From the IMG/VR virus record IMGVR_UViG_3300013126_000028, positions 1-64,000 of that record: a DNA stretch of 64,000 nt, one strand, 5' to 3'. The notes under the pieces are model-generated. The model ran no database searches, was not told the origin of the DNA, and saw nothing but the letters and a program-made list of their open reading frames with translations. Positions within the stretch are counted from its first letter, which is position 1. Each line of letters opens with the position of its first letter. The position numbers and the translations under genes were made by a program. Positions 1 through 51,057 of this stretch are shown here, piece by piece. Source of the stretch: a virus.

Positions 1-138
1 CCAGCCACGGTGCTGTAGTTGCCGCTGCTACTGTTGTTTCTTCCCCCAGCCGCGGCGCGGTGGTAGCCGCTGCTGGTGTTGTTGTTTCCCCCGCCCACGG
101 TGCTGCCGTAGCCGCTGCTACTGTTGCTTTTTCCCCCC
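1..138 (-). other. Out-of-frame continuation of the tail fibre
   Basis: Beyond the apparent stop at 118-120 the repeat coding continues without a break in another frame (NSSSGYGSTVGGG, then NNNTSSG, then NNSSSGNYSTVAG) to base 1. Deleting one base from the G6A5 run at about 129-139 would join it to the upstream frame. The true fibre therefore extends past the left edge, unless the run is a genuine on/off switch or a sequencing artefact. Confidence 0.75.
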
Positions 139-830
139 GCCCGTGGTGCTGTTGTTGCTGCTGCTAGGGTTTCTTCCGCCCCCGCCCACGGTGCTGTAGT
201 TGCCGCTGCTAGTGTTGTATCTTCCCCCGCCCACGGTGCTGTAGTTGCCGCTGCTACTGGTGTTTTGATACCCCCCGCCCACGGTGCTGTAGTTGCTGCT
301 GCTAGTGTTGCTTCTTCCCCCGCCCACGGTGCTGTAGTTGCCGCTGCTACTGTTGTTATACCCCCCGCCCACGGTGCTGCTGTAGCCGCTGCTAGTGTTG
401 CTTCTTCCCCCAGCCACGGTGCTGTAGTTGCCGCTGCTAGTGTTGTATCTTCCCCCGCCCACGGTGCTGTAGTCGCCGCTGCTACTGTTGCTTCTTCCCC
501 CAGCCACGGTGCTGTCGGTGCCGCTGCTACTGTTGCTTCTTCCCCCAGCCACGGTGCTGTAGTAGCCGCTGCTACTGTTGCTATACCCCCCGCCCACGGT
601 GCTGCTGTAGCCGCTGCTACTGTTGCTACTTCCCCCAGCCACGGTGCTGCTGTAGCCGCTGCTACTGTTGCTATACCCCCCGCCCACGGTGCTGTAGTTG
701 CCGCTGCTAGTGTTGCTTCTTCCCCCAGCCACGGTGCTGAAGTTGCCGCTGCTACTGTTGCTTCTTCCCCCAGCCACGGTGCTGTCGGTGCCGCTGCTAG
801 TGTTGCTTCTTCCCCCGCCAATAACACTAT
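1..830 (-). repeat. 45-bp tandem repeats of the tail-fibre gene
   Basis: About 18 imperfect copies of a 45-bp unit encode a 15-residue module of the form GG-R/Y-x-N-x-SSG-x-Y-STV-A/G. The array runs off the left edge of the window. It is strikingly GC-rich compared with the AT-rich DNA around it, and on the plus strand it reads as stacked alanine/valine codons with no coding meaning. The array is the kind of DNA in which unequal recombination and homopolymer slippage change copy number and frame. Confidence 0.93.
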
Positions 831-1848
831 AATTCCCACTAGCCGCTTGATTATTATTTGATCGTACAGTTTGCCAATCAACAGCATACTCTCCTCTAGC
901 GTCTCCACCAGAATCTCGTTGTAAAGCTCCTGCGCCGCTAGGACTAATAATTATATTTCCATTAGTATTAGTGCTGGAAATAGTATTACTATCTAAACGC
1001 AAATTATCAACATTTAATATTGGTCCAATATTAACGCTATTATTCAAAGCATTAAGATTTAAACTACCGCTCTCAGCAAGAATACTTAGATCATAATCGG
1101 CTAAAGAGTAAATTTCATTAACGTTGCTTGAGGGACCATTTCCATTATAATTTTCGGTATTATAAGAACCTATAATTAATTTATTGGATAATCCACCACC
1201 ACCACTTCTTAATTTAATTTCTGTAGGATAGTTTGAACTTTCTTCATTAGTAATGACTAGTGTTGGATTATTAGTTCCAAATATTGTTACTCCTCCACTA
1301 TCAGCAGCAGCAGAATATTCCGACGTGTCAATAATGAGTTGATCAACACTAATACCTAAATAGTGTTTATTGTTTGTTGGTGTTTGAGCGTATATAACGT
1401 TGTCATCTATTTTGATCTTATCTATTACTAAAGCTCCGCTAACAGCTAATGTTGTTCCATCAAACGTGAGGTTACTTTCAGCATCAATACCAATAGATGT
1501 ATCATCTCTACTAGTAAGAATTCTATTATTGGTTGGGTTGTTAATTAAACCGCTAACACTAACAGTCAAGCTGTCAGTACTATCATTAAAATTTAGATCT
1601 ATGCCGCTACCAGCTTGTAAAATTTCACTAACTAAACCATCAACATCTTCTATAACAATAGTACCAGCGCTCATGTACGGTAAACTATTCCAGGGTGTAA
1701 CTCCATCTCCTATTTTTAATTTACCAGTGTCCTTTTCATATCCTGGTTCACCAAGTCGTAAAATTTCTCCACCGGGTTGTGGTTCGCTAGCAGTCCATTC
1801 TGCTGCTGTGCCTCTACGAAATTTTATTGTATCATATCTTTTTGTCAT
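118..1848 (-). CDS. Tail fibre protein with YadA-like head repeats (readable part)
   Basis: The first 60 residues match the N-terminal module common to phage tail fibres and receptor-binding proteins (KFRRGTAAEWT, then GEPGYEKDTGKLKIGDG and PWNSLPY), which attaches to the virion. Residues 80-320 form an Asn/Ser-rich shaft. From about residue 340 there are about 15 copies of a 15-residue GGxxNxSSGxYSTV module, resembling the left-handed beta-roll head repeats of YadA-type adhesins. The reading frame ends in KKQQ-stop at a G6A5 run, but the same repeat continues in another frame up to the window edge, so this end is probably a frameshift rather than the natural C-terminus. The start ATG lies downstream of a GGTGTAT motif. 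It probably acts in host recognition. Confidence 0.85.
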   Translation of the reverse strand: MTKRYDTIKFRRGTAAEWTASEPQPGGEILRLGEPGYEKDTGKLKIGDGVTPWNSLPYMSAGTIVIEDVDGLVSEILQAGSGIDLNFNDSTDSLTVSVSGLINNPTNNRILTSRDDTSIGIDAESNLTFDGTTLAVSGALVIDKIKIDDNVIYAQTPTNNKHYLGISVDQLIIDTSEYSAAADSGGVTIFGTNNPTLVITNEESSNYPTEIKLRSGGGGLSNKLIIGSYNTENYNGNGPSSNVNEIYSLADYDLSILAESGSLNLNALNNSVNIGPILNVDNLRLDSNTISSTNTNGNIIISPSGAGALQRDSGGDARGEYAVDWQTVRSNNNQAASGNYSVIGGGRSNTSSGTDSTVAGGRSNSSSGNFSTVAGGRSNTSSGNYSTVGGGYSNSSSGYSSTVAGGSSNSSSGYSSTVGGGYSNSSSGYYSTVAGGRSNSSSGTDSTVAGGRSNSSSGDYSTVGGGRYNTSSGNYSTVAGGRSNTSSGYSSTVGGGYNNSSSGNYSTVGGGRSNTSSSNYSTVGGGYQNTSSSGNYSTVGGGRYNTSSGNYSTVGGGGRNPSSSNNSTTGGGKKQQ

Positions 1849-7959: not shown

Positions 7960-8823
7960 CTAATAAGTTTCATAATAGATTTTCCAAACTTTAAATGAAC
8001 TATAATTAATATTATTATTTTTACAAAATTCTCTTTTGGACAATCCTGAGTCAATCCATTCTTGGTATTTTTGTTTTTTGTATTCTAGGTCTTTAATTAA
8101 TTTTTTAGGTTGTATTTTTTCATTATCTCTAATATATCTTCTATACCATCTAGATATTGCGCTAGGAACTAAACCAAGCATAGTGGCATAGTCAGCTTGT
8201 GTCAAGTTTAAAGATAGCATTTTTTGAATATGTTTTTTCTTATTATCGTGAGTTAATGTTCTTAAATCTGGTCTATATTTTCTAATCCACCAATTAAATA
8301 CATTGTTTTTTAGGTTATATTTTTTACAAATGTTTTTCTTTTCAATAGGAAAAGAATCCTCCCATTCTTGCAAAATTCTATGAATTTCCTCAAGTGGCAA
8401 AATTAATCTTTCATCTCTTTGTTCGTTCCAGTATGTCTCGGGTCTATTAGAGCAAGCTTCGGACATATTTTTACGATGATTAGTAGAAAATTTTTTGCCT
8501 AAATTACACTTTCCAATATCCGACGATTCGGTTAATATATTTGTCAATATTCCTGTATCGTCTTGAATTTTACCAAACCATTTAATCAAAAAAGTTTCTT
8601 TTTCTAAAGCTTGTTCATAAGATTCACACTCATATAAAATTTTAACAATAAATCCATATTTATTAATGTAAGATTTTTTGATAGGATTATTATTTTTACT
8701 CCTATGTCCATTAATTCTAGTTTTTAAGTCTTTAGTAATTCCTATATAAAATAATCCTTCATCTAATTTATTAGTTTTATACTCAAATTTTTCTTTATAA
8801 AGACCGTAAATATAAATTTTCAT
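7960..8823 (-). CDS. GIY-YIG homing endonuclease
   Basis: 287 residues. Residues 2-100 form the GIY-YIG domain: the first motif is IYIYG, the second is GLFYIGIT, followed by DLKTRINGHRS and the catalytic Glu in ALEKETFLIKW. Residues 145-285 contain repeated helix-turn-helix units (LTQADYATMLGLVPSAISRWYRR, then LSKREFCKNNNI) that would bind the homing site. It is free-standing between genes and has its own upstream GGTGTATAAT motif and AGGAGG ribosome-binding site. A selfish mobile gene. Confidence 0.88.
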   Translation of the reverse strand: MKIYIYGLYKEKFEYKTNKLDEGLFYIGITKDLKTRINGHRSKNNNPIKKSYINKYGFIVKILYECESYEQALEKETFLIKWFGKIQDDTGILTNILTESSDIGKCNLGKKFSTNHRKNMSEACSNRPETYWNEQRDERLILPLEEIHRILQEWEDSFPIEKKNICKKYNLKNNVFNWWIRKYRPDLRTLTHDNKKKHIQKMLSLNLTQADYATMLGLVPSAISRWYRRYIRDNEKIQPKKLIKDLEYKKQKYQEWIDSGLSKREFCKNNNINYSSFKVWKIYYETY

Positions 8824-26880: not shown

Positions 26881-27250
26881 TTTTTAACCATTTTTTGTAA
26901 TTTTCTAAAGAATATCCAGTCATTGAATATTTAACCTCTTTATTTACTAGTATTTTACTATCAGGAATAAGAGATATTTTGTATTCTTTTTTATACTCTG
27001 GATTGGTTTTTATATTTACATAACATATAATATAACGATCCATTTCTGGAATTTTGTTATCCAGTAGATCTTTTTTTAGCTTTAAGCAGTAGCGACAGTC
27101 ATCTGAACCAAAAATTATAAGAGGGGTCTTTCCTGTTTCTTCAGACAGTTGTAGAGTTTCTTCTATGGAAGATAATATAAATCCTTCATTAGCATAAATT
27201 AATGTTGATAATGATATAAAAATCATAAAAGCTGATAAAAATTTAATCAT
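26867..27250 (-). CDS. Exported thioredoxin-like protein
   Basis: 127 residues with a signal peptide (IKFLSAFMIFISLSTLIYA) and a thioredoxin fold around the redox motif DDCRYCLKLKKDLL (CRYC), plus the cis-Pro strand LIPDSKILVN. Likely a periplasmic thiol-disulphide enzyme; it could assist the Cys-containing secreted protease encoded nearby. Confidence 0.78.
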   Translation of the reverse strand: MIKFLSAFMIFISLSTLIYANEGFILSSIEETLQLSEETGKTPLIIFGSDDCRYCLKLKKDLLDNKIPEMDRYIICYVNIKTNPEYKKEYKISLIPDSKILVNKEVKYSMTGYSLENYKKWLKNAKF

Positions 27251-28137
27251 ATATTGCCGATCACCCTTCCTTTTTGAGTTCTGTGTACAAATCCTTTTCT
27301 GACTAAATATGGTTCGATGCTATTCTCAATAGTTTCTATTGCTATTCCAGTTAACGAACTAATGGCTTTTAACCCCAAAGGATTACCTTTATTTTTCTTT
27401 AGAATATCCAAATACATATTATCATACACATCTAGTCCATTTTTATCAATTCCTTGACTATTGAATATATCATCAATACTACAATTATTTCCATGACACA
27501 TAACATAATTATGATACCATTGTAGTCTAGCGTTTAAAATTCGCGGAGTACCTTTGCTTCTTTTAGCAATTTCCAAAAGGTCTGAAGGTGATATGACTAT
27601 TCCTAGACTACCAGAGTTCAATCCTGCTAGTTTGGCTAGTTCATCGTCAGAATAAAAAGTCAAATGTTCTTTAATAGTGAATCTATCATAAAAAGGACGA
27701 CTTAAGGTTCCAGAATTAGTAGTTGCTCCCACTAGAGTAAATGCTGGAACTTCAATTTCTTCTGGTTCTTTTTCTAAAATAATATTAATTTTGAAATCTT
27801 CCATAACAGGATATAAGAATTCTTCAACCAGTTTGGGTAGTCTGTGGATCTCGTCGATAAAAAATACTGATCTTTTAGTCATTCTCAACAAATAGGGCAA
27901 AACGCTTTTAACGCTGCGTAAATTAGCCGCATTTGCTGTATATAGATTTACATCCATTTCCGTGGCTATAGCACCCGCTATGGTCGTTTTACCCAGCCCA
28001 GGAGGCCCGTCAATTAAAACATGAGGCATCACACTGTTGGTTTTTTTACATCCCAGCGTGGAAATTTTTAACCGATCAATAACACTAGTTTGCCCAATAA
28101 TTTTATCAAATGATGTTGGTCTTTTAATTGCTGACAT
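27247..28137 (-). CDS. ruvB: RuvB-like Holliday-junction branch-migration ATPase
   Basis: 296 residues, slightly shorter than bacterial RuvB (about 335). Walker A DGPPGLGKTTIA, Walker B FFIDEIH, sensor 1 LVGATTNSG, arginine finger region LSRPFYDRF, sensor 2 RSKGTPRILNARL, and a C-terminal winged helix (PYLVRKGFVHRTQKGRV). It pumps DNA through Holliday junctions, normally with RuvA. Overlaps by 14 bases the gene encoding a RuvA-domain-III-like protein. Confidence 0.92.
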   Translation of the reverse strand: MSAIKRPTSFDKIIGQTSVIDRLKISTLGCKKTNSVMPHVLIDGPPGLGKTTIAGAIATEMDVNLYTANAANLRSVKSVLPYLLRMTKRSVFFIDEIHRLPKLVEEFLYPVMEDFKINIILEKEPEEIEVPAFTLVGATTNSGTLSRPFYDRFTIKEHLTFYSDDELAKLAGLNSGSLGIVISPSDLLEIAKRSKGTPRILNARLQWYHNYVMCHGNNCSIDDIFNSQGIDKNGLDVYDNMYLDILKKNKGNPLGLKAISSLTGIAIETIENSIEPYLVRKGFVHRTQKGRVIGNI

Positions 28138-30638: not shown

Positions 30639-31526
30639 TCAATACTTGCTAGGAGGCAAACCCCACTGGTCATCTTCCTCCATATCATCCTCATCTTCAT
30701 AATCGTCCTCGTCATCATCAAACTGATCCCAGTATTCACTGTCGAGATCATAATCTTCATCATCCTCATAATCAGCATATTCATCTTCAGAAAAGTTAGC
30801 CGAATAAAGAGGCTTGACTAGTTCGCCTTGATACTCTCCAACAACTTCATATTGGCAAGTGCGAAGTTTCTCACAGTTACAATCACTAGGAACACTCACA
30901 ACATCACGCGGATTAATCTTAACGATCACGATACGATCACCACTTTCCACAGACCCATAACCAGCAACATAATTCAATGCACCAGCATGAAGTCCATCAG
31001 AACAACCCCTAGCACGATCATCATCAACCTTGGCTCTTTGCATTTTGCAAATCTTGCCAACACTATTATCAAATGCTCCACGATACTTATCCTTGTAATC
31101 ATTCCTAACTGCCTTATAAGCAAGGAAATACCCATCCTCAGTAATAGGCAGATGCTCATGCTCAAGGAAATCATAGAGTTCCTTCTGACTCTGCATACTA
31201 GGATTATCCATCAAATTATTGAGAAAATTAACAAGAGGCTGAAAAGGTAATCCCTTGCTCATAAACTCCAGAATACGCTTGCTGATACTACCATGAACAA
31301 CCTCACCCTCATAGGTGACTTGACCATCCTTAATCTCAACAAGACCATCACTAAAAGTAGCCACAGCCTTTTCTACATCAACAACTTCAAGAAGTTCATC
31401 AGAGGTCGCTGTTGGCAACTTCTCCATAATCATCTTGTAGTTAATATGATCCGGCAAAACCTGATAGGTCTTATTGTTAAGAACCAACGTAAGATTACCA
31501 TCAACAAACATAAAAGGAACTGACAT
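30639..31526 (-). CDS. rIIB: RIIB-like protein
   Basis: 295 residues. MSVPFMFVDGNLTLVLNNKTYQVL, then PFQPLVNFLNNLMDNPS, EHLPITEDGYFLAYKAVRNDYKDKYRGAFDNSVG are the hallmark of the rIIB family. A long acidic tail follows (residues 235-295). ATG 31526 is preceded by AGGAG; an upstream in-frame start lacks a site. T4 rIIA and rIIB work in rapid lysis control and exclusion by lambda rex; the mechanism is unclear. It follows rIIA as in T4. Confidence 0.88.
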   Translation of the reverse strand: MSVPFMFVDGNLTLVLNNKTYQVLPDHINYKMIMEKLPTATSDELLEVVDVEKAVATFSDGLVEIKDGQVTYEGEVVHGSISKRILEFMSKGLPFQPLVNFLNNLMDNPSMQSQKELYDFLEHEHLPITEDGYFLAYKAVRNDYKDKYRGAFDNSVGKICKMQRAKVDDDRARGCSDGLHAGALNYVAGYGSVESGDRIVIVKINPRDVVSVPSDCNCEKLRTCQYEVVGEYQGELVKPLYSANFSEDEYADYEDDEDYDLDSEYWDQFDDDEDDYEDEDDMEEDDQWGLPPSKY

Positions 31527-31561
31527 AATTAAATCTCCTGTTAAAGTTACCTGTGAATAAA

Positions 31562-34213
31562 TCAACCAACAATTTTACCAAACGACAATCGCAACTCTTC
31601 AACCTTACTATCATCCATTCTATTAAGCCAGCGATCATCAGATCTACCATAATAGTTTTCAGTATCCAGTTGCCTGAGAGGATTAACACTGCGCAATTCT
31701 CTCAAATTGCCTGATACCGGATGGATACACATAATATACTTCATCATCGGGTTGTTGTCAACCTCTGTTTTAATAATTTTTCTCAGACCAGCCATTTTCG
31801 GACAATCATATTGACCATTAGCTGATGGCTTAAAAATCTTGGTGTATTCAGAAATACTATTCTCTTTATAGAAACTCAACAACATAGCGTTGATATTATT
31901 ATATAGTATATTAGCCTCTTTAATCTTACTACTATCAAGACCATTGATACCAAAGTCATGCAACAACTTTGTCATATGAGTATAGTAATCATCTTTCTTG
32001 AATCTGCTAATATCAAAGGTATTACGACGAATAGTATCAGCAAAGAACTCCACAATCATTAGACTATTCAGAGTATCCACAACGCTACGCTTAGTAATAT
32101 ATTTCTCATAATCCAAACCAAAGATATTCAAGATATGGAAAAGGAACTGTCTATCTAGATAACCCTCTCTGTAATTCTTAGATATCTTGTCGTCACTATT
32201 ATATTCATTCTTACATTTTTGCACAAGTTCGTTGAACTGGTAGATATCCTTAAACTTGGTATCATTCAGTTTCTGTAGTCGCTTCTTGAACCAAGTATTA
32301 AAATCTACAAGGTTGTACCCATCCTTCTTTAAACGATCCACAACACTTTTCTTAATAGCGTAAATGTTGGTATCATCAATTATCTTATTTTCGATTAGAA
32401 AATCTTTGTGTCCGTAAAGTTTATTAATTTCTGGATAATTACTGGAGGTTTCCACAGCATATCTAACGATGGGAAGATAAATAATCTCATCCTCATCCTC
32501 AAGATCATCTAACCTTGTCTGACTAAGACTCTTCATATAAGTAGCATCGTTGTAGTCATAATTAAGAGTCTTTGTGTCTTTAGCGTCCCCAATAATCAAA
32601 AAGATTTCTTGATCACTAACACTACCCTTAGTCCCCTTACTAGCACGACTCTTTGAGGTACTCTTAATAAGATCGCGATAATCAGACACATTAAGAATGT
32701 TAGATTCTCCAACATCCTTGATTAGATCGCTAAAACCATTACTCACATTAGCGTGATCCTTTGTATTAACCATAAGATATGCAAAACAATCATTAGTATT
32801 GCAATATTTAGTTACAATCTTCTTAGCTGTTTCTGTTGCCGCAATATCACACCAGAAAAACTTCATATCGCCATTCTTCTTGCCACTACTATTCCAATAG
32901 TTATACCCTTTGCCAGTAAGAGTATCATGATGAATAGTATTAGTAAGATAAATCATTCTTCTAGAACGATATCCTGCTGTACGATAATTGAAGACATAAA
33001 GATTTTCTTCTTTTTCTAGTTTGTATTCAAGATCTTGACCAGAACTAATATTATGAATTTTACCATTACTATCAGTCCAAGATGCTCCCACACCCCAACC
33101 ACCAGCAAGATCATTCATCTGATAATATGTCTGGATTGCTTCCACCTTGGTTTTAGCAGTAGCGATCTTGTCACTAAAATTCTTCTTCAACTCTACAAAG
33201 ATATCTTGTGTCTTTTCACGCAAGGTTTTGACTACACTTTTAGTATACTGCAAACCTTCTCTGTTTACTTCCATTTCGAGTTCACCAATACCAAAATCAA
33301 GTTCTAGATAAAGACCCTGATTAATGATCTCGCTAACAAAACTTTTCCAAGAAGCAATATCAGCCTTATTAAAGGCTCTATTCCACTTGGCAATATGATC
33401 TGGGGTTTCACTCTTTTCATCACCAATAAGATGAGAAACTTCGACCGGATAAGCAATATTGCCCATGATAGCAATAACGCCACTCTGGATACGATGATGA
33501 TTATTGGGAAACTTCATATTGTCGTTGTTGAGTCTACAAACTCTCCAACCATCACCATCGATAACAACGTTACGCTGGCTATATTCTTCTTTATTAAAAT
33601 CCCAATGAACGCCACCCTCGATAATAGGCTTATGCTTAAAGTAATGAAAAACCCTAACAGCCTTCTGACTAAACTCTGGAAAATCATATTGCTTAACAGC
33701 AAAACTAACTTCAAGACCATTAGGCTCATTAGTTTCAACACTATGAATAAGATTTAGATTAGGCACACCGGCTTCATCGATAGCAGCAATATAAGTATAT
33801 TGAGTACCATTAAAATAAGAGGTGGCAGTAAAACTTTTGGTATATGCAAAAGGACTTTTGCTTCCTAGTCCAAGACAACCAACAAAATCATTACTGTCGT
33901 TCTTATTACTTGCGCCATAAGTTGTATACAAACTCTGCATATCTTCTTGAGACAAGCCAGTACCATAATCGCGAACCACAAAATTAGGATTAGCGGCAGT
34001 TGGTAGAGTTACCTTAAATGGATTCTTATTACCAGCACTAACATGACTATCATAAGCGTTGGTAGCAAGTTCACGAATAGGTGCTTGTACTTTGTCAGAA
34101 TATAGAGAATCTGACAAGATCTTGAACATTTTTGCACTTTGACTAATCGTAAACTGATTAGTGCTATTAATACCAACACTATGAACTTCAACCGTTCGAT
34201 CCGCGAGTTTCAT
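31562..34213 (-). CDS. rIIA: RIIA-like protein (GHKL ATPase domain)
   Basis: 883 residues, longer than T4 RIIA (725). The first 200 residues form a GHKL ATPase: APIRELATNAYDSH (N box), VRDYGTGLS (G1), GCLGLGSKSPFAYT (G2). The rest is a long, mostly helical region. It has a strong sigma70-type promoter 35 bases upstream, in keeping with early transcription as in T4. Followed by rIIB. Confidence 0.9.
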   Translation of the reverse strand: MKLADRTVEVHSVGINSTNQFTISQSAKMFKILSDSLYSDKVQAPIRELATNAYDSHVSAGNKNPFKVTLPTAANPNFVVRDYGTGLSQEDMQSLYTTYGASNKNDSNDFVGCLGLGSKSPFAYTKSFTATSYFNGTQYTYIAAIDEAGVPNLNLIHSVETNEPNGLEVSFAVKQYDFPEFSQKAVRVFHYFKHKPIIEGGVHWDFNKEEYSQRNVVIDGDGWRVCRLNNDNMKFPNNHHRIQSGVIAIMGNIAYPVEVSHLIGDEKSETPDHIAKWNRAFNKADIASWKSFVSEIINQGLYLELDFGIGELEMEVNREGLQYTKSVVKTLREKTQDIFVELKKNFSDKIATAKTKVEAIQTYYQMNDLAGGWGVGASWTDSNGKIHNISSGQDLEYKLEKEENLYVFNYRTAGYRSRRMIYLTNTIHHDTLTGKGYNYWNSSGKKNGDMKFFWCDIAATETAKKIVTKYCNTNDCFAYLMVNTKDHANVSNGFSDLIKDVGESNILNVSDYRDLIKSTSKSRASKGTKGSVSDQEIFLIIGDAKDTKTLNYDYNDATYMKSLSQTRLDDLEDEDEIIYLPIVRYAVETSSNYPEINKLYGHKDFLIENKIIDDTNIYAIKKSVVDRLKKDGYNLVDFNTWFKKRLQKLNDTKFKDIYQFNELVQKCKNEYNSDDKISKNYREGYLDRQFLFHILNIFGLDYEKYITKRSVVDTLNSLMIVEFFADTIRRNTFDISRFKKDDYYTHMTKLLHDFGINGLDSSKIKEANILYNNINAMLLSFYKENSISEYTKIFKPSANGQYDCPKMAGLRKIIKTEVDNNPMMKYIMCIHPVSGNLRELRSVNPLRQLDTENYYGRSDDRWLNRMDDSKVEELRLSFGKIVG

Positions 34214-40167: not shown

Positions 40168-41085
40168 TCAAGTATCTCTTTTTTCTCCATAAAGATACTT
40201 AAAAGTAGGAAATCTTAGTGATTTTCCACCATCTTGGTTCTCAGTCTCTTCAAAATACTGAACCAAAATTTGCTTACCTAAAATTTTAGTAGGATCTTGA
40301 TAAAACTCTTGACGTTGTTTGATAGTGAAACCACTACCAACATCAACAGTATATCCTTTATGTACAATTATCGCATTAGATAACATGGTTTCCTCATGTT
40401 CTCTACCATCCTTCACATATCTAAATGGTCCGGTTGTAATCTGAACCACTTCATATTCACCATCATAAAAACTCTTATACTTCAATAAGTCTTTACTTCT
40501 TTTACCTTTGTATGGAGCATCAGCCCTAAACATAATACCCTCCCAATTATTGGTATTAGCCTTACCGGACCATTCATTAAAATCATCATCACAAGTAACT
40601 TTTTCGTGTTCAAGAACACTCAAACACTTACAGGTATTTTTTTTCATTACTTCATTAAGATTAGAATAGCGAATACTATAAGGTTTATTTTTATCTCCCT
40701 TTTTACTATAGAATTCGTCGTGACTAATCATATCAAAGATCTTATAGGAGGGATTCTCTAAGGTATGATCTTTCTTACGAATTTCTTTCATAACGCCCTG
40801 AAAATCTTCATTACCATTATCATCTATAAGACATAATTCTCCATCAAATACAACATTCTTAATTCCAAGATCTTTAATTCCACCAGCAACAACATCTAAA
40901 GTATCAAACGTCTTACCTGTTCTAGAATAAAAAGAAGAGTTTCCATCGTTGTCTACTATGGCAATAAGCCTACAATTATGTTTGAGTATACCATTAGCAA
41001 AAAAATTAGCATTATCAGCAACTTCTAGTTCGTATTTATCTTTTGATTCAATTTTTTCTATTGATTTAATTTTAATATTTTGCAT
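40168..41085 (-). CDS. DNA ligase C-terminal part fused to C-intein
   Basis: 305 residues. Residues 1-37 are a C-intein: block F ELEVADNANFFANGIL and block G LKHN, followed by Cys38 as the +1 residue. Residues 38-305 continue the ATP-dependent DNA ligase directly after the catalytic KLDG: CRLIAIVD, motif III FDGELCL, motif IV WEGIMFR, motif V LLKYK, then an OB domain. It cannot act alone as it lacks the AMP-lysine. Protein trans-splicing with the product of the gene at 42017 would recreate the ligase. AGGA precedes the ATG, inside the endonuclease gene. Confidence 0.92.
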   Translation of the reverse strand: MQNIKIKSIEKIESKDKYELEVADNANFFANGILKHNCRLIAIVDNDGNSSFYSRTGKTFDTLDVVAGGIKDLGIKNVVFDGELCLIDDNGNEDFQGVMKEIRKKDHTLENPSYKIFDMISHDEFYSKKGDKNKPYSIRYSNLNEVMKKNTCKCLSVLEHEKVTCDDDFNEWSGKANTNNWEGIMFRADAPYKGKRSKDLLKYKSFYDGEYEVVQITTGPFRYVKDGREHEETMLSNAIIVHKGYTVDVGSGFTIKQRQEFYQDPTKILGKQILVQYFEETENQDGGKSLRFPTFKYLYGEKRDT

Positions 41086-41963
41086 AATTTCCTTTCAATT
41101 TTTCCTATGTCTTTTTGTATATCTGATACCCAAAAACAGTATATCTTATAACCAAAACTTTTCAAATGATTAACACGAATTTTGTCTTTTTTCCAAATAT
41201 CTTTAGCGCACAATTCCCCATCCCATGTTATAATAATATCATTTGGTTTATATGTTTTAGGATTAGCGTGAAATGTATCTCCGTAAATTTCAATAATAAT
41301 TTTTTTATTTTCAATAATTATATCTGGTCTAGGATTATATTTTCTTTTTAAACTTTTATTATATCTATTAAAATTTATGTCTTCTGTGTTTTCGCTAATA
41401 TAAATTATATTATATTTATCTAATATAGTCTCTATTCTTTTATGTGGTATAGATTTTTTACCATTATTTCTTCTGTAACTTGGTAAATCAACTGAATTTT
41501 CAATTCCATATTTTTTTATCATTGTCTGTCTACTCTTTTGCTTAATAGACTCAACTTGAAAAATATTGGTAATACCCTTTCCGTATTTTTTCTCTAATGT
41601 TTTTTTGGTTGTTGGGGATTGAAAAGCGTTTTTATATCCGTATTTTTTGATATTTGTTTCCTCCCTCTGACGCTTTGTAATGGGATTATTCATAGCCTCT
41701 TTAATTGTCTGAGTCTTAATTCCTAATTTTTTACATCTTTCAATTATGTGTCTTGTTTTTATTTTTGGATCATTTAATTCTATTTCTAGAGAATAACATG
41801 AACGCTTAAATTTAATAATATGTTTAGTCAAATATTTTTTTGTTAGGATATTATTTCTATAGCAAGATATATATTTATTATACTCCTCACATTTTGCTTG
41901 ATGTCCGTATAATTGTTTTTTGGTTTTTAACCCAGTTTTATTACAATATTTACATTTCATCAT
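41058..41963 (-). CDS. EDxHD-type homing endonuclease in the ligase fracture
   Basis: 301 residues. N-terminal Cys-His zinc finger (CKYCNKTGL, then GHQAKC). The C-terminal domain is Vsr-like: RPDIIIENKKIIIEIYGDTFHANP with Glu, Asp and His of the EDxHD set, AKDIWKKDKIR giving the final acid and KIYCFWVSDI closing the fold. Such endonucleases were described inside split-intein fractured genes. It sits between the two ligase halves and overlaps the C-intein gene by 28 bases. It has its own GGTGTATTAAATA motif. Confidence 0.85.
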   Translation of the reverse strand: MMKCKYCNKTGLKTKKQLYGHQAKCEEYNKYISCYRNNILTKKYLTKHIIKFKRSCYSLEIELNDPKIKTRHIIERCKKLGIKTQTIKEAMNNPITKRQREETNIKKYGYKNAFQSPTTKKTLEKKYGKGITNIFQVESIKQKSRQTMIKKYGIENSVDLPSYRRNNGKKSIPHKRIETILDKYNIIYISENTEDINFNRYNKSLKRKYNPRPDIIIENKKIIIEIYGDTFHANPKTYKPNDIIITWDGELCAKDIWKKDKIRVNHLKSFGYKIYCFWVSDIQKDIGKIERKLCKILKLNQ

Positions 41964-41977
41964 AATCTCCTCGTTAG

Positions 41978-41990
41978 TATTTAATACACC
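41978..41990 (-). promoter_or_regulatory. GGTGTATTAAATA promoter candidate
   Basis: Minus strand GGTGTATTAAATA, 15 bases before the endonuclease ATG, with GAGGAG in between. Member of the GGTGTAT motif set. Confidence 0.4.
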
Positions 41991-42016
41991 AATATCGAGA
42001 AAACTAGATGGAAAAT

Positions 42017-42844
42017 TTAATTGCTAAAAAGAATTTCTTCGTTTCCGTTCAATTCATCTACACGACGATAGCATTTTAATTTAGGAACATATACTGTGTC
42101 GTTGCCAGTGATATTAAGAATGACTCCATTTTCTAATGTAATTTTATACCATTGTGTAGGTTTAGTTTCAGAAATGTCGTGCAAATTTTTCATATGATTT
42201 ATAATAGGCTTATACTCTATTTTTTTACTTTTATGATTATAACACTTAACATTACCTACTATTTTATTGTCTATTACATAACCTACTGGTAAACGATCAC
42301 CATTATCAAACTCTACAATGGTATTATAATCAACACACCCGTCTAGTTTGCGTGAGACAAACCAGCCATCTTCCCAATCCACAATATTGGGGTCAAATTT
42401 ATCGGCCAAAGCCACACTAAACTCTGGAATCAAGTTTGGTATTGCTTTATTTAAGATCTTATCGCCCGCCCTGGTTTTTAAGTCCTTGTCAATAACACAA
42501 TGAATAAGTTCCTCATACTCATCATTATGTTCAATAAAACTATTTACCGCCGCAATAGCATCATGACCAGTAATTTTGCGACTCTTTAGATCGTCGAGAA
42601 GATCAAAGAAATTATTGTATTCGTTCTTTCGTGAGACAAGATGATTTTTCTTCTTTAGATTGTCGCTTGTAATATTGTATTGCCAAAGAGGATGGTAAGT
42701 ATATCGAAGAATATTTTTAGCAAAATTTGCTGATGCTGTGTTGTGTCCACAATAATCAAGGATAATACCTTCTTTATCTTTGGTGCTACTTGTGGCCCTA
42801 AGATCACGAACCATTCCCCAAACATAATCAAAATCGTGAATCAT
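42017..42844 (-). CDS. DNA ligase N-terminal part fused to N-intein
   Basis: 275 residues. Residues 1-169 are the N-terminal domain of a phage-type ATP-dependent DNA ligase ending in SRKLDG with the adenylated lysine at 166. Residue 170 is the catalytic Cys1 of an N-intein of 106 residues: block A CVDYNTIVEFDNG, block B-like YKITLENGVILNITGND, then YRRVDELNGNEEI. The usual block B His (TxxH) is Asp here (TGND). AGGAG precedes the ATG and a strong promoter lies 25 bases upstream. Ligation needs splicing to the C-terminal half. Confidence 0.92.
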   Translation of the reverse strand: MIHDFDYVWGMVRDLRATSSTKDKEGIILDYCGHNTASANFAKNILRYTYHPLWQYNITSDNLKKKNHLVSRKNEYNNFFDLLDDLKSRKITGHDAIAAVNSFIEHNDEYEELIHCVIDKDLKTRAGDKILNKAIPNLIPEFSVALADKFDPNIVDWEDGWFVSRKLDGCVDYNTIVEFDNGDRLPVGYVIDNKIVGNVKCYNHKSKKIEYKPIINHMKNLHDISETKPTQWYKITLENGVILNITGNDTVYVPKLKCYRRVDELNGNEEILFSN

Positions 42845-42868: not shown

Positions 42869-42897
42869 AGTATACCCTATTCAATAGTGTCTGTCAA
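42869..42897 (-). promoter_or_regulatory. Sigma70-type promoter for the ligase operon
   Basis: Minus strand: TTGACA, 17 bp, TATACT; near consensus. It overlaps the 3' end of the SET-domain gene. Confidence 0.75.
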
Positions 42898-43295: not shown

Positions 43296-43837
43296 TAATC
43301 TCCCCAGTACAGTTTTTCTTCTCGTTTATAAAACTTTAGATTTTGCTTTGCATAATCGGATACAAAGTGTTTATCTTCAAATTCTAAATAATTATTAGGA
43401 TATAATGCGAATTGTCCATTAATTAATTCTATCAGATTTAAGGGTTTATGCTCTTGAGGGTATCTACTAAATCCATCAGTCCAGTCTATTATTATTCCAG
43501 TATGTCTAGCACCAGTTTTTATAACTTCTCTTGTATAACACCTCATCCCTTCAAGATATTCCATATATACGGCTTCTATATTTTCACCCATAGTTGACCA
43601 AGGCATCAATTCTTGATAGTCATAAGAAAAATCTTCTGATGTTGAAATTCCATGTATGGGCAGTCCGCTCCAATTTGCCCCACTTTCTAATAGTACATGA
43701 CAGAATAAAACCTGATTCATTCTGCCAAATACTCCATGCCAAATACCATTAGTATAACCATTTGGCATATTACTTCCAAGATATTTATTGTTTATCTTGA
43801 CATATAGATGAAATGGTAATGATGAGTGTCTAGACAT
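43295..43837 (-). CDS. Hypothetical protein
   Basis: 180 residues, alpha/beta, with many aromatic residues (NGIWHGVFGRMNQVLFCHVLLESGANWSGLP). No family recognised. Coupled by single-base TAATG overlaps to the SET gene and to the endonuclease VII-like gene. Confidence 0.68.
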   Translation of the reverse strand: MSRHSSLPFHLYVKINNKYLGSNMPNGYTNGIWHGVFGRMNQVLFCHVLLESGANWSGLPIHGISTSEDFSYDYQELMPWSTMGENIEAVYMEYLEGMRCYTREVIKTGARHTGIIIDWTDGFSRYPQEHKPLNLIELINGQFALYPNNYLEFEDKHFVSDYAKQNLKFYKREEKLYWGD

Positions 43838-44175
43838 TATTTATTCTTTCTGGATAAGAAATAATTCATTGCTTTAACGATACCATCTAAGTTATCCCCA
43901 AGTTTACCTAGACCTTCGTTACAACTCTTACAAAGCCACCCTCTAAAAGTATCATCACTATGATCATGATCTAATGCCCATTGATAAGGTACTTTTCCAC
44001 AAAGTTCACAAACATCCGGTTTTGGTGGTGCTACTTTATGAAGTTTACTTCTTATTTTAGAATGTTTTTTAACACACTGTCTGCATCTACTATCAAGATT
44101 ATCTTTGTACATACTGTGCTTGGGAAAACTTTTGAGATTTTTTCGTTTGCCACAGTAGGTACAAATTTTTCTCAT
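43837..44175 (-). CDS. Endonuclease VII-like HNH nuclease
   Basis: 112 residues from ATG 44175. Zinc-binding CTYCGKRK and CRQC, then CELCGKVPYQWALDHDHSDDTFRGWLCKSCNEGLGKLGD, the recombination endonuclease VII signature (LDHDH...RGxLCxxCNxxLG). T4 endonuclease VII resolves Holliday junctions before packaging; this could work with RuvB, or be a homing-type nuclease. Confidence 0.85.
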   Translation of the reverse strand: MRKICTYCGKRKNLKSFPKHSMYKDNLDSRCRQCVKKHSKIRSKLHKVAPPKPDVCELCGKVPYQWALDHDHSDDTFRGWLCKSCNEGLGKLGDNLDGIVKAMNYFLSRKNK

Positions 44176-44177
44176 TA

Positions 44178-44356
44178 TCAACAACTTGGCGAGATATGAA
44201 TGTGATCTAGTGAATAAACAAGAGTTTTTTTATCAAGAACTAAACTTAAGTGATCTTTAATAATTTGAACTTGAACAGATGATAATTACCTATGGGATCA
44301 TGTTCTATTAGTTCAAAAAATCCTTGCAACCAATAAACAAAATTTTCTGGGGTCAT
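44178..44356 (-). pseudogene. Frameshifted small phage protein (YWLQG family)
   Basis: Frame one gives MTPENFVYWLQGFFELIEHDPIGN; a second frame then gives SVQVQIIKDHLSLVLDKK up to TGA at 44178. Together they match the common small phage protein with xYWLQGFxEL and later IIKDHLxLVF. Restoring one T near 44286 rejoins the frames. As read, translation stops after 36 residues. Either a decayed gene or a sequence error. Confidence 0.7.
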
Positions 44357-44790: not shown

Positions 44791-44818
44791 TTGCATTCTT
44801 ATAATTATTGTGTATTAT
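44791..44818 (+). promoter_or_regulatory. Plus-strand promoter of the HNH gene
   Basis: TTGCAT, 16 bp, TATTAT, diverging from the tmRNA promoter, about 20 bases before ATG 44840. Confidence 0.6.
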
Positions 44819-44839
44819 ATGGTAAGGGGTTCGATTCAG

Positions 44840-45400
44840 ATGAAAGATAAAATCTTAAATCTTCGTAAAAAAGGCTTATCTTATAACGATATCCAAAAGA
44901 AATTAAAGTGTTCAAAAGCAACAATTAGTTATCATTGTGGTAAAGGACAAAAAAAGAAGAACGATTTGCGTAGGCGAAGGCGTAGATCGTCTAATATACT
45001 AAGAAATAAAATAGAAAATTTTAAATACAAACAAAAAACAGAAATTATATATGAAAAAGATCATCGTAATGTTCGCAAAATTTTACAAATTAAATTGAGT
45101 TTTTTTAGTATGAACAGAAAAACAAAAAAGGTAAAGCAAAAATTTTCTTTACAGGACTTAGTAGATAAAATTGGAGATAATCCAACCTGCTATTTAACTG
45201 GTAGACCTATAGATTTATCTGATGGACGATCATATCATTTAGATCACATCGTTCCAGTTAGTAAAGGTGGTTCAAACGATTTATCAAATTGTCAAATAGC
45301 GTGTAAAGAAGCAAACCAAGCAAAGAGCAATTTGTCTTATGATGAATTCATTAAACTTTGTCAAGAAGTGATTCATAAAAGTCCCAAGCCTGGGAGTTAA
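44840..45400 (+). CDS. HNH endonuclease with N-terminal HTH
   Basis: 186 residues from ATG 44840 (GGGG ten bases upstream). Residues 1-35 are a helix-turn-helix (LSYNDIQKKLKCSKATISYHC), 40-70 very basic, and 120-175 the HNH domain CYLTGRPI...YHLDHIVPVSKGGSNDLSNCQIACKEANQAKSN. Typical free-standing homing endonuclease inserted between RNA genes; one of only two plus-strand genes. Its 3' end overlaps the tRNA-Ile gene on the other strand. Confidence 0.85.
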   Translation: MKDKILNLRKKGLSYNDIQKKLKCSKATISYHCGKGQKKKNDLRRRRRRSSNILRNKIENFKYKQKTEIIYEKDHRNVRKILQIKLSFFSMNRKTKKVKQKFSLQDLVDKIGDNPTCYLTGRPIDLSDGRSYHLDHIVPVSKGGSNDLSNCQIACKEANQAKSNLSYDEFIKLCQEVIHKSPKPGS

Positions 45401-50210: not shown

Positions 50211-50413
50211 GATGCAACTTGAGAAATTTCTTCTGCACTATGAATTTTCACCACATGAAATTCTATACTTGGTGAATACCAATTTTTAAATTGTTGAATA
50301 GCATCTTCCGATGAATTTGCAACAAATATTTGATTTATTAAGAGGTTTTGTTTATGGGGATCGTGAAGTTTATAAACCTGTGCTGTTACATTATATTCTT
50401 TCATAGTATCCAT
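50207..50413 (-). CDS. Hypothetical small protein
   Basis: 68 residues, ferredoxin-like alternating pattern (YNVTAQVYKLHDP, IFVANSSEDAIQQFKNWY). Overlaps thyX by 13 bases. Unassigned. Confidence 0.63.
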   Translation of the reverse strand: MDTMKEYNVTAQVYKLHDPHKQNLLINQIFVANSSEDAIQQFKNWYSPSIEFHVVKIHSAEEISQVAS

Positions 50414-51057
50414 TCTTTCTCCAATCCTCCTAATGCTTCACTAATTATCGGAAATTGTTCACAAAAGATCTTTTTACATTCTTTTGCAATAAGCATATGT
50501 TCTTTCTGAGTTCCGTTCTTTTCTCTTAGCGCTATGTATGTTATCCATGATCTTAGAGTGCCATTCATATATAATCTTGTGGGGGTCGCTAAAGGCAATA
50601 CAAATCTAGCACACTCTTTTGCTATTCCATCCTTAATCATCCCATCATATATCGCTTTGGCTTTTGAGAAATGTTCTCGTAGTTTACTATTCCATCTGTA
50701 AATAATTTCTTGATCTATATCATCTATACTATTTTGTCTATTTTTAGTATCTTGCCGACGAAGTTCAAACAATGGAATTTCTTCTGCTAATAGATTTGTA
50801 TCAGCATACCTTTGACTGAACTCTTGAAAATTGAAACTTCTATGTCGCAAAATCTGTGCAGCCAAACCTCTAGTTGTATTTATCTCTAAATTAAGATTAG
50901 CCATTTCAAAAATAGACCAGTGTTTGTGATCTATACAATATTTTAATAGTTTTGATATATTATTATTGTCTTGATTTTTTGGATTACTTACTCTAGCACA
51001 ATAGGCTATGTGCTTTTCTGCATCTGGCGTTACACTAATCAATTTTACATTACTCAT
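50401..51057 (-). CDS. thyX: Flavin-dependent thymidylate synthase
   Basis: 218 residues. The ThyX motif appears as LRHRSFNFQEFSQRYAD, with KHWSIFEMANLNLEI before it and AKECARFVLPLATPTRLYMNGTLRSW after it. It makes dTMP from dUMP with methylenetetrahydrofolate, FAD and NADPH. Common in AT-rich phages. Confidence 0.93.
   Translation of the reverse strand: MSNVKLISVTPDAEKHIAYCARVSNPKNQDNNNISKLLKYCIDHKHWSIFEMANLNLEINTTRGLAAQILRHRSFNFQEFSQRYADTNLLAEEIPLFELRRQDTKNRQNSIDDIDQEIIYRWNSKLREHFSKAKAIYDGMIKDGIAKECARFVLPLATPTRLYMNGTLRSWITYIALREKNGTQKEHMLIAKECKKIFCEQFPIISEALGGLEKEWIL

What the first reader, a model, noticed from the sequence alone, without database searches (positions are those of the whole stretch)
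40975..42844. DNA ligase fractured inside its catalytic motif by a split intein with an EDxHD endonuclease
The N-half ends KLDG and is followed by a Cys1 N-intein; the C-half starts with a C-intein ending HN before CRLIAIV. Joining them gives KLDGCR, the ATP-ligase KxDGxR motif, interrupted three residues after the adenylated lysine. The endonuclease with E/D-x-H/D residues lies between. Fractured genes of this kind were known from environmental data for helicase, ribonucleotide reductase and IMPDH. Here it affects ligase motif I, so ligase activity depends on trans-splicing.
Basis: partly seen in the sequence, partly recalled or inferred. Interest (0 to 1): 0.9.

Follow-up and report, generated by a model that had tools for sequence, protein, structure and literature searches.

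The report
Phage DNA ligase split by intein
A freshwater phage carries its DNA ligase as two separate genes with a selfish nuclease gene between them, and the two protein halves are predicted to stitch themselves together through a split intein placed exactly in the enzyme's active-site motif; it is a new host gene for a known kind of selfish element, seen here in five different phage records.

Summary
Minus-strand 42844-42017 is ligase N-half (169 aa) plus a 106-aa N-intein. 41963-41058 is a free-standing endonuclease. 41085-40168 is a 37-aa C-intein plus ligase C-half (268 aa). The halves meet at one position of the phage ligase profile, inside motif I (K-L-D-G|C-R). Four more IMG/VR records carry the same layout, diverged in every part and under purifying selection: neither assembly break nor decay. 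The 79 other related viral ligases are uninterrupted there. All five fractured ligases have the Cys+1 nucleophile; 32 of 35 distinct uninterrupted sites have Ala. Inserts are more alike than the ligases carrying them, and intein-bearing ligases scatter on the ligase tree: horizontal mobility. The nuclease model matches I-Bth0305I and Vsr (EDxHD-type). No second ligase was found in the records searched (all fragments). Splicing, and ligase dependence on it, are inferred. This is a new member of the known 'fractured gene' kind; I found no report of it in ligase, but the founding paper was not readable.

The parts
42338..42844 (-). Ligase N-half (N-extein, 169 aa) ending K-L-D-G; own start codon and Shine-Dalgarno (ACAGGAG)
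   Evidence: phrog_114 98-250, E 2e-25; 73-83% identical to the four relatives
42017..42337 (-). N-intein, 106 aa, Cys1, block B reads T-G-N-D (Asp instead of His), then stop
   Evidence: L002 homologue above TIGR01445 cut-off; pairwise match to an intein in UvsX of phage pEa_SNUABM_17, which has TPNH at the same place; Foldseek top hits all inteins although model confidence is low
41960..42008 (-). Predicted RNA hairpin that pairs the endonuclease Shine-Dalgarno (GAGGAG, 41972-41967) and reaches its start codon
   Evidence: MFE -15.1 kcal/mol, z -3.2; equivalents in the other four loci z -2.8, -1.7, -1.2, -4.5; 91% of pair cells kept vs about 53% when slid, but no significant covariation
41058..41963 (-). 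Free-standing EDxHD/Vsr-type endonuclease, 301 aa, Cys-rich N-terminus (CKYC...H...C); candidate catalytic E177, D213, H231, D259 (numbered from the second Met) invariant
   Evidence: AlphaFold model best matches I-Bth0305I catalytic domain and Vsr (VIA-align Z 9.9 and 9.1)
40975..41085 (-). C-intein, 37 aa, own ATG and Shine-Dalgarno (AAAGGAAA), ends F-F-A-N-G-I-L-K-H-N; overlaps the endonuclease 3' end by 28 nt
   Evidence: TIGR01443 above cut-off, Pfam Intein_splicing 120-155/155
40168..40974 (-). Ligase C-half (C-extein, 268 aa) starting C-R (Cys+1); carries motifs FDGEL, YKIFDM, WEGIMFR, LLKYK and the OB domain
   Evidence: phrog_114 250-501, E 4e-49; PF01068 E 5e-14; PF14743 E 5e-8

Best explanation
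It is a fractured gene. A mobile element made of a split intein and an EDxHD/Vsr-type homing endonuclease gene has entered a phage ATP-dependent DNA ligase gene between the codons for G and the next residue of motif I (KxDG|xR). The two halves are translated as separate proteins. N-intein and C-intein associate, fold into one Hint domain, and splice in trans (Cys1 N-S shift, transfer to Cys+1, Asn cyclisation), giving an unscarred KLDGCR ligase. The endonuclease cuts uninterrupted ligase genes of co-infecting phages at this conserved site, and repair copies the whole element with its Cys+1 codon into them. A hairpin over the endonuclease's ribosome-binding site probably delays or limits its translation, as for T4 homing endonucleases. 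Shown: anatomy, homology, conservation, empty sites, horizontal spread, nuclease fold. Inferred: splicing, cleavage specificity, homing direction, hairpin function, dependence of ligase activity on splicing.
For: Exact junction on the ligase profile. Same three-gene layout in L002, L087/L082, L088 and L095; a degenerate C-intein motif scan of all IMG/VR finds only these four records. Splice residues C1, H36-N37 (C-intein) and C+1 invariant. Pairwise NG86 dN/dS about 0.03-0.27 for N-ligase, N-intein, endonuclease and C-ligase, dS largely saturated. 79 relatives are uninterrupted at the site. Cys+1 in 5/5 fractured vs 1/35 distinct empty sites, Fisher 9e-6; about 3e-5 after adding L004, an empty site with Cys. 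L002 vs L095: third-position identity 0.85 in the insert, 0.52 in the ligase, p 4e-17. On the ligase tree the four complete fractured ligases need four label changes, each sitting next to uninterrupted ligases. Nuclease relatives lie inside split polB genes of Aes123, CP21 and PTm1. Fold matches to I-Bth0305I and Vsr.
Against: Block-B His, which most inteins need (PMC7765530), is Asp in all five copies; block F also lacks its usual Asp (Glu here) and His (Ala here). No splicing, cleavage or expression data. The scattered tree is also what one old insertion with many losses would give, although the L002-L095 contrast is not. Hairpin covariation is not significant. L095's C-ligase has stop codons near its contig end. 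All records are fragments.
Confidence: 0.88

Rival explanations
1. The two halves work as a non-covalent two-subunit ligase, as reported for split NrdA of phage Aeh1 and split gp43 of Aeromonas phage 25, and the intein remnants no longer splice.
For: Such split enzymes exist (PMC2988022). The intein lacks the canonical block-B His.
Against: C1, HN and C+1 are invariant in five diverged copies and the N-intein is under purifying selection. Cys+1 is specifically enriched in intein carriers. The break lies inside motif I, right after the adenylated Lys, and unspliced halves would keep 106 and 37 extra residues at the active site.
Confidence: 0.07
2. The element is decaying: splicing or endonuclease is dead and the ligase is non-functional, its role taken by another phage or host ligase.
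For: Records are incomplete, so another ligase cannot be excluded; hosts have an NAD-dependent ligase (general knowledge).
Against: No frameshifts or internal stops in any part of the four complete loci; low dN/dS for the endonuclease as well as the exteins. No second ATP- or NAD-dependent ligase in a 223-kb fractured relative.
Confidence: 0.04
3. Assembly or sequencing artefact: a contiguous large intein broken by errors, or a chimera.
For: One related contig, L007, is a mosaic of window-like and L009-like sequence, so chimeras may occur in this data.
Against: Five records from different samples share the same order; the four complete ones share the stop, a 53-58-nt gap, separate start codons and a 28-37-nt overlap.
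Confidence: 0.01

Closest known systems
Fractured genes of marine metagenomes and phages (Dassa et al. 2009, NAR 37:2560; citation seen, paper not held)
   Same: Conserved DNA-metabolism enzyme split by a split intein with a free-standing, often Vsr-like (EDxHD) endonuclease gene between the halves; mainly phage (content from memory).
   Different: Host gene here is an ATP-dependent DNA ligase, fractured in motif I; I could not check whether that paper's list of enzymes includes a ligase.
Fractured polB of Aeromonas phage Aes123, Campylobacter phage CP21 and Tenacibaculum phage PTm1
   Same: Same three-part order; their Vsr-type endonucleases are relatives of this one, 28-31% identity.
   Different: DNA polymerase host; the Aes123 and CP21 inteins are cysteine-less (PMC12707363), this one is Cys1/Cys+1.
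I-Bth0305I, EDxHD homing endonuclease
   Same: Catalytic-domain fold.
   Different: Intron-encoded rather than in a fractured gene (PMC3943268); target specificity of ours untested.
Intein in UvsX-like recombinase of Erwinia phage pEa_SNUABM_17
   Same: Closest N-intein found in a named phage, 26% identity, pairwise E 3e-9.
   Different: Lies within one long UvsX-like frame rather than a split gene; block B is TPNH, not TGND.

Membership tests
Fractured gene (split intein plus free-standing endonuclease) | Conserved enzyme broken into two ORFs at one exact position | tested here: met
   phrog_114 98-250 / 250-501; 79 uninterrupted homologues
Fractured gene (split intein plus free-standing endonuclease) | N-intein on the N-half and C-intein on the C-half | tested here: met
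Fractured gene (split intein plus free-standing endonuclease) | Independent endonuclease ORF between the halves | tested here: met
   five loci, own start codon
Fractured gene (split intein plus free-standing endonuclease) | Trans-splicing restores the enzyme | not testable with these tools
   residues consistent, no assay
Class 1 (Cys1) intein | Cys1, penultimate His and terminal Asn, Cys/Ser/Thr+1 | tested here: met
   invariant in all five
Class 1 (Cys1) intein | Block B TxxH histidine | tested here: not met
   TGND in all five; a related UvsX intein has TPNH at that place. I therefore file it as an intein by fold, profile and splice residues, not as a canonical class 1 intein
Class 1 (Cys1) intein | Hint fold | tested here: met
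   low-confidence model (pLDDT 36) of the L002 copy, yet the leading PDB matches are all inteins, Npu DnaE split intein first
EDxHD homing endonuclease | Catalytic-domain fold of I-Bth0305I/Vsr | tested here: met
   Foldseek probability 1.00, E 4e-3; VIA-align Z 9.9 over 93 residues, rmsd 3.0
EDxHD homing endonuclease | Catalytic E, D, H, D residues | tested here: inconclusive
   E177, D213, H231, D259 invariant in four copies; assignment to the motif made by eye, no residue-level superposition
EDxHD homing endonuclease | Cuts the uninterrupted allele and drives its own copying | not testable with these tools
   mobility pattern only

The most novel reading that the evidence does not exclude
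A naturally split, Cys1/Cys+1 intein family that splices without the block-B His: Asp stands there in all five phage copies, with Glu and Ala at the usual block-F Asp and His. If active, it activates the N-terminal scissile bond differently, perhaps through the invariant His35 or His48 of the N-intein, while gating a DNA ligase from inside its adenylation motif.
Probability: 0.45. Interest if true: 0.65.

Novelty: new member of a known kind. Interest (0 to 1): 0.52.

Why it matters
It adds DNA ligase, cut inside the motif that holds the adenylated lysine, to the enzymes that phages keep in two pieces behind a split intein. The five-copy set with many uninterrupted relatives makes homing by a split-intein element testable with defined donor and recipient alleles. 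The Asp in place of the block-B His gives a natural test of what intein catalysis requires, and the pair is a candidate new split intein for protein engineering.

Tried and rejected
Search of bacterial and archaeal genomes for the N-intein found no relative. Direct sequence search of PDB with the N-intein found nothing relevant; fold comparison did. Rfam on the window: no match. The closeness of the window's N-ligase to L007 (about 350 nt identical) was first taken as a co-conversion tract, then set aside because L007 is a mosaic that switches from window-identical to L009-identical sequence within about 35 nt, likely an assembly chimera. Promoter and terminator scan: counts no higher than in shuffles. 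Covariation test of the hairpin: not significant. Literature: no paper in the library was found that describes an intein in a DNA ligase; the founding fractured-gene paper was not readable, so priority is unsettled.

Full report
WHAT IS THERE. On the minus strand, three ORFs follow each other. 42844-42017 encodes 169 aa of ligase ending KLDG, then 106 aa of N-intein starting CVDYNT. 41963-41058 encodes a 301-aa endonuclease. 41085-40168 encodes a 37-aa C-intein ending FFANGILKHN, then 268 aa of ligase starting CRLIAIVD. The N-half matches the phage ATP-dependent ligase profile phrog_114 at 98-250 and the C-half at 250-501. Nothing of the matched ligase region is missing or doubled at the join, and the break is three residues after the motif I lysine. 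The C-half carries the later nucleotidyltransferase motifs (read by eye) and an OB domain. Each ORF has its own start codon and Shine-Dalgarno-like sequence.

IT IS REAL AND MAINTAINED. Four other IMG/VR records have the same layout: L002 (223-kb record), L087/L082 (44 kb), L088 (106 kb) and L095 (6 kb). A scan of all IMG/VR with a degenerate pattern for FFANGILKHNCR finds exactly those four. The stop, the 53-58-nt gap and the 28-37-nt overlap of endonuclease and C-intein recur in the four complete loci. Protein identities between the window and the four are 73-83% (N-ligase), 70-78% (N-intein), 66-83% (endonuclease), 84-92% (C-intein) and 66-72% (C-ligase, complete loci), with pairwise dN/dS mostly 0.03-0.27 and saturated dS; the short, overlapping C-intein gives unreliable ratios. 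There are no internal stops in the four complete loci. In L095 the last few C-ligase codons before the contig end contain stops, probably end-of-contig error.

EMPTY SITES. The other 79 loci found with the C-half are ligases uninterrupted at this position. Of 35 distinct uninterrupted site sequences, 32 have Ala, 2 Leu and 1 Cys after KxDG; all five intein carriers have Cys, the splice nucleophile (Fisher 9e-6). One further uninterrupted ligase with Cys, L004, was found later, which weakens this to about 3e-5 (hand calculation, 2 of 36). Those Cys-bearing empty sites could be precise-loss footprints or simply natural variants.

IT MOVES. L002 and L095 differ at 48% of third codon positions in the ligase but at only 15% in the N-intein plus endonuclease (p 4e-17); identity falls away on both sides of the insert. 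Window and L087 show the same trend more weakly. On a 46-row ligase tree the four complete fractured ligases are scattered, four label changes being forced by well-supported branches. One old insertion with many losses also fits the tree but not the L002-L095 contrast.

THE ENDONUCLEASE. Profile hits are weak (DUF559, Vsr). The AlphaFold model from four sequences (mean pLDDT 67) has as best solved matches the EDxHD homing endonuclease I-Bth0305I and Vsr, with VIA-align Z 9.9 and 9.1 in the C-terminal part (a small N. gonorrhoeae endonuclease-like protein ties at 10.1). Sequence relatives in named phages are the endonuclease ORFs of the split polB loci of Aes123 (annotated with N- and C-intein), CP21 and PTm1.

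THE INTEIN. The C-intein clears its profile cut-off. The window's N-intein does not, but the L002 homologue does. A read-through model of N-intein, out-of-frame filler and C-intein from L002 has low confidence (pLDDT 36), yet its leading PDB matches are all inteins, headed by the Npu DnaE split intein. Block B reads TGND in all five copies; a related UvsX intein has TPNH at the aligned place. A review calls the block-B His highly conserved and usually essential, with few natural exceptions, and gives Asp and His as usual in block F (PMC7765530); here block F has Glu and Ala (my assignment by eye, KYELEVADNANFF). The family therefore departs from the canonical class 1 set but keeps Cys1, His-Asn and Cys+1.

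CONTROL OF THE ENDONUCLEASE. The gap between N-half and endonuclease can form a hairpin that pairs the endonuclease Shine-Dalgarno. In all five copies it folds more stably than the shuffle mean (z -1.2 to -4.5), and 91% of pair cells are kept versus about 53% in slid registers, but covariation is not significant. RBS-sequestering hairpins of this type control T4 I-TevI, I-TevII, I-TevIII, SegB and Aeh1 MobE (PMC2988022). Function here is inferred.

SECOND LIGASE. None found: phrog_114 or PF01068 gives only the fractured gene in the window's 65.6-kb record, and phrog_114 only the fractured gene in three related records; NAD-ligase and RNA_ligase profiles give nothing. These are fragments, so absence is not proof.

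VERDICT. The arrangement is a known kind, the fractured gene. The ligase host, the position in motif I and the five-copy comparative evidence are new to me and to the papers I could search, but the founding paper could not be read.

Noticed in passing
L007 1-6460 vs window 46403-42497: Contig IMGVR_UViG_3300013131_005619 is window sequence (1 mismatch in 3907 nt) that switches within about 35 nt, about 160 nt before the intein site, to sequence identical to L009: assembly chimera or a very recent recombinant.
   Followed up: partly
L083 2791-5114: A distant EDxHD-like endonuclease (28% identity) lies at the 3' end of an RNA-ligase-1-like gene, followed by what looks like a duplicated copy of that gene's C-terminal end.
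   Followed up: no
L106 1171-3234 (record of L002, 6196-7314): A second, contiguous intein with a LAGLIDADG-like region lies in a papain-like protease-like protein, directly before what looks like the active-site Cys (GDC|...NN|CVSHATRN); its block B is the usual TPDH.
   Followed up: no
L026 and L029 (KLDGCR), L004 (QKCDGCR): Uninterrupted ligases with Cys at +1 where most have Ala: possible footprints of precise intein loss.
   Followed up: partly
window 42869-42897 (-): Sigma-70-like promoter TTGACA-17-TATACT upstream of the ligase N-half; an equivalent TTGACA...TATACT lies upstream of the gene in L002.
   Followed up: no
window 7960-8823 (-), 44810-45400 (+), 43837-44184 (-): Other nuclease genes: a GIY-YIG-like ORF, an HNH-like ORF, and an endonuclease VII-like ORF (phrog_2633) that also sits near the ligase in L002 and L088.
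   Followed up: partly
window 30642-34213 (-), 27250-28137 (-), 50404-51057 (-): rIIA/rIIB-like genes, a clamp-loader ATPase and a thymidylate synthase: the record is probably a fragment of a large tailed phage with T4-like functions.
   Followed up: partly
window 118-1848 (-): Strongly repetitive glycine/serine-rich protein (GGGRSNTSSGNYSTV repeats), possibly a tail fibre or adhesin.
   Followed up: no
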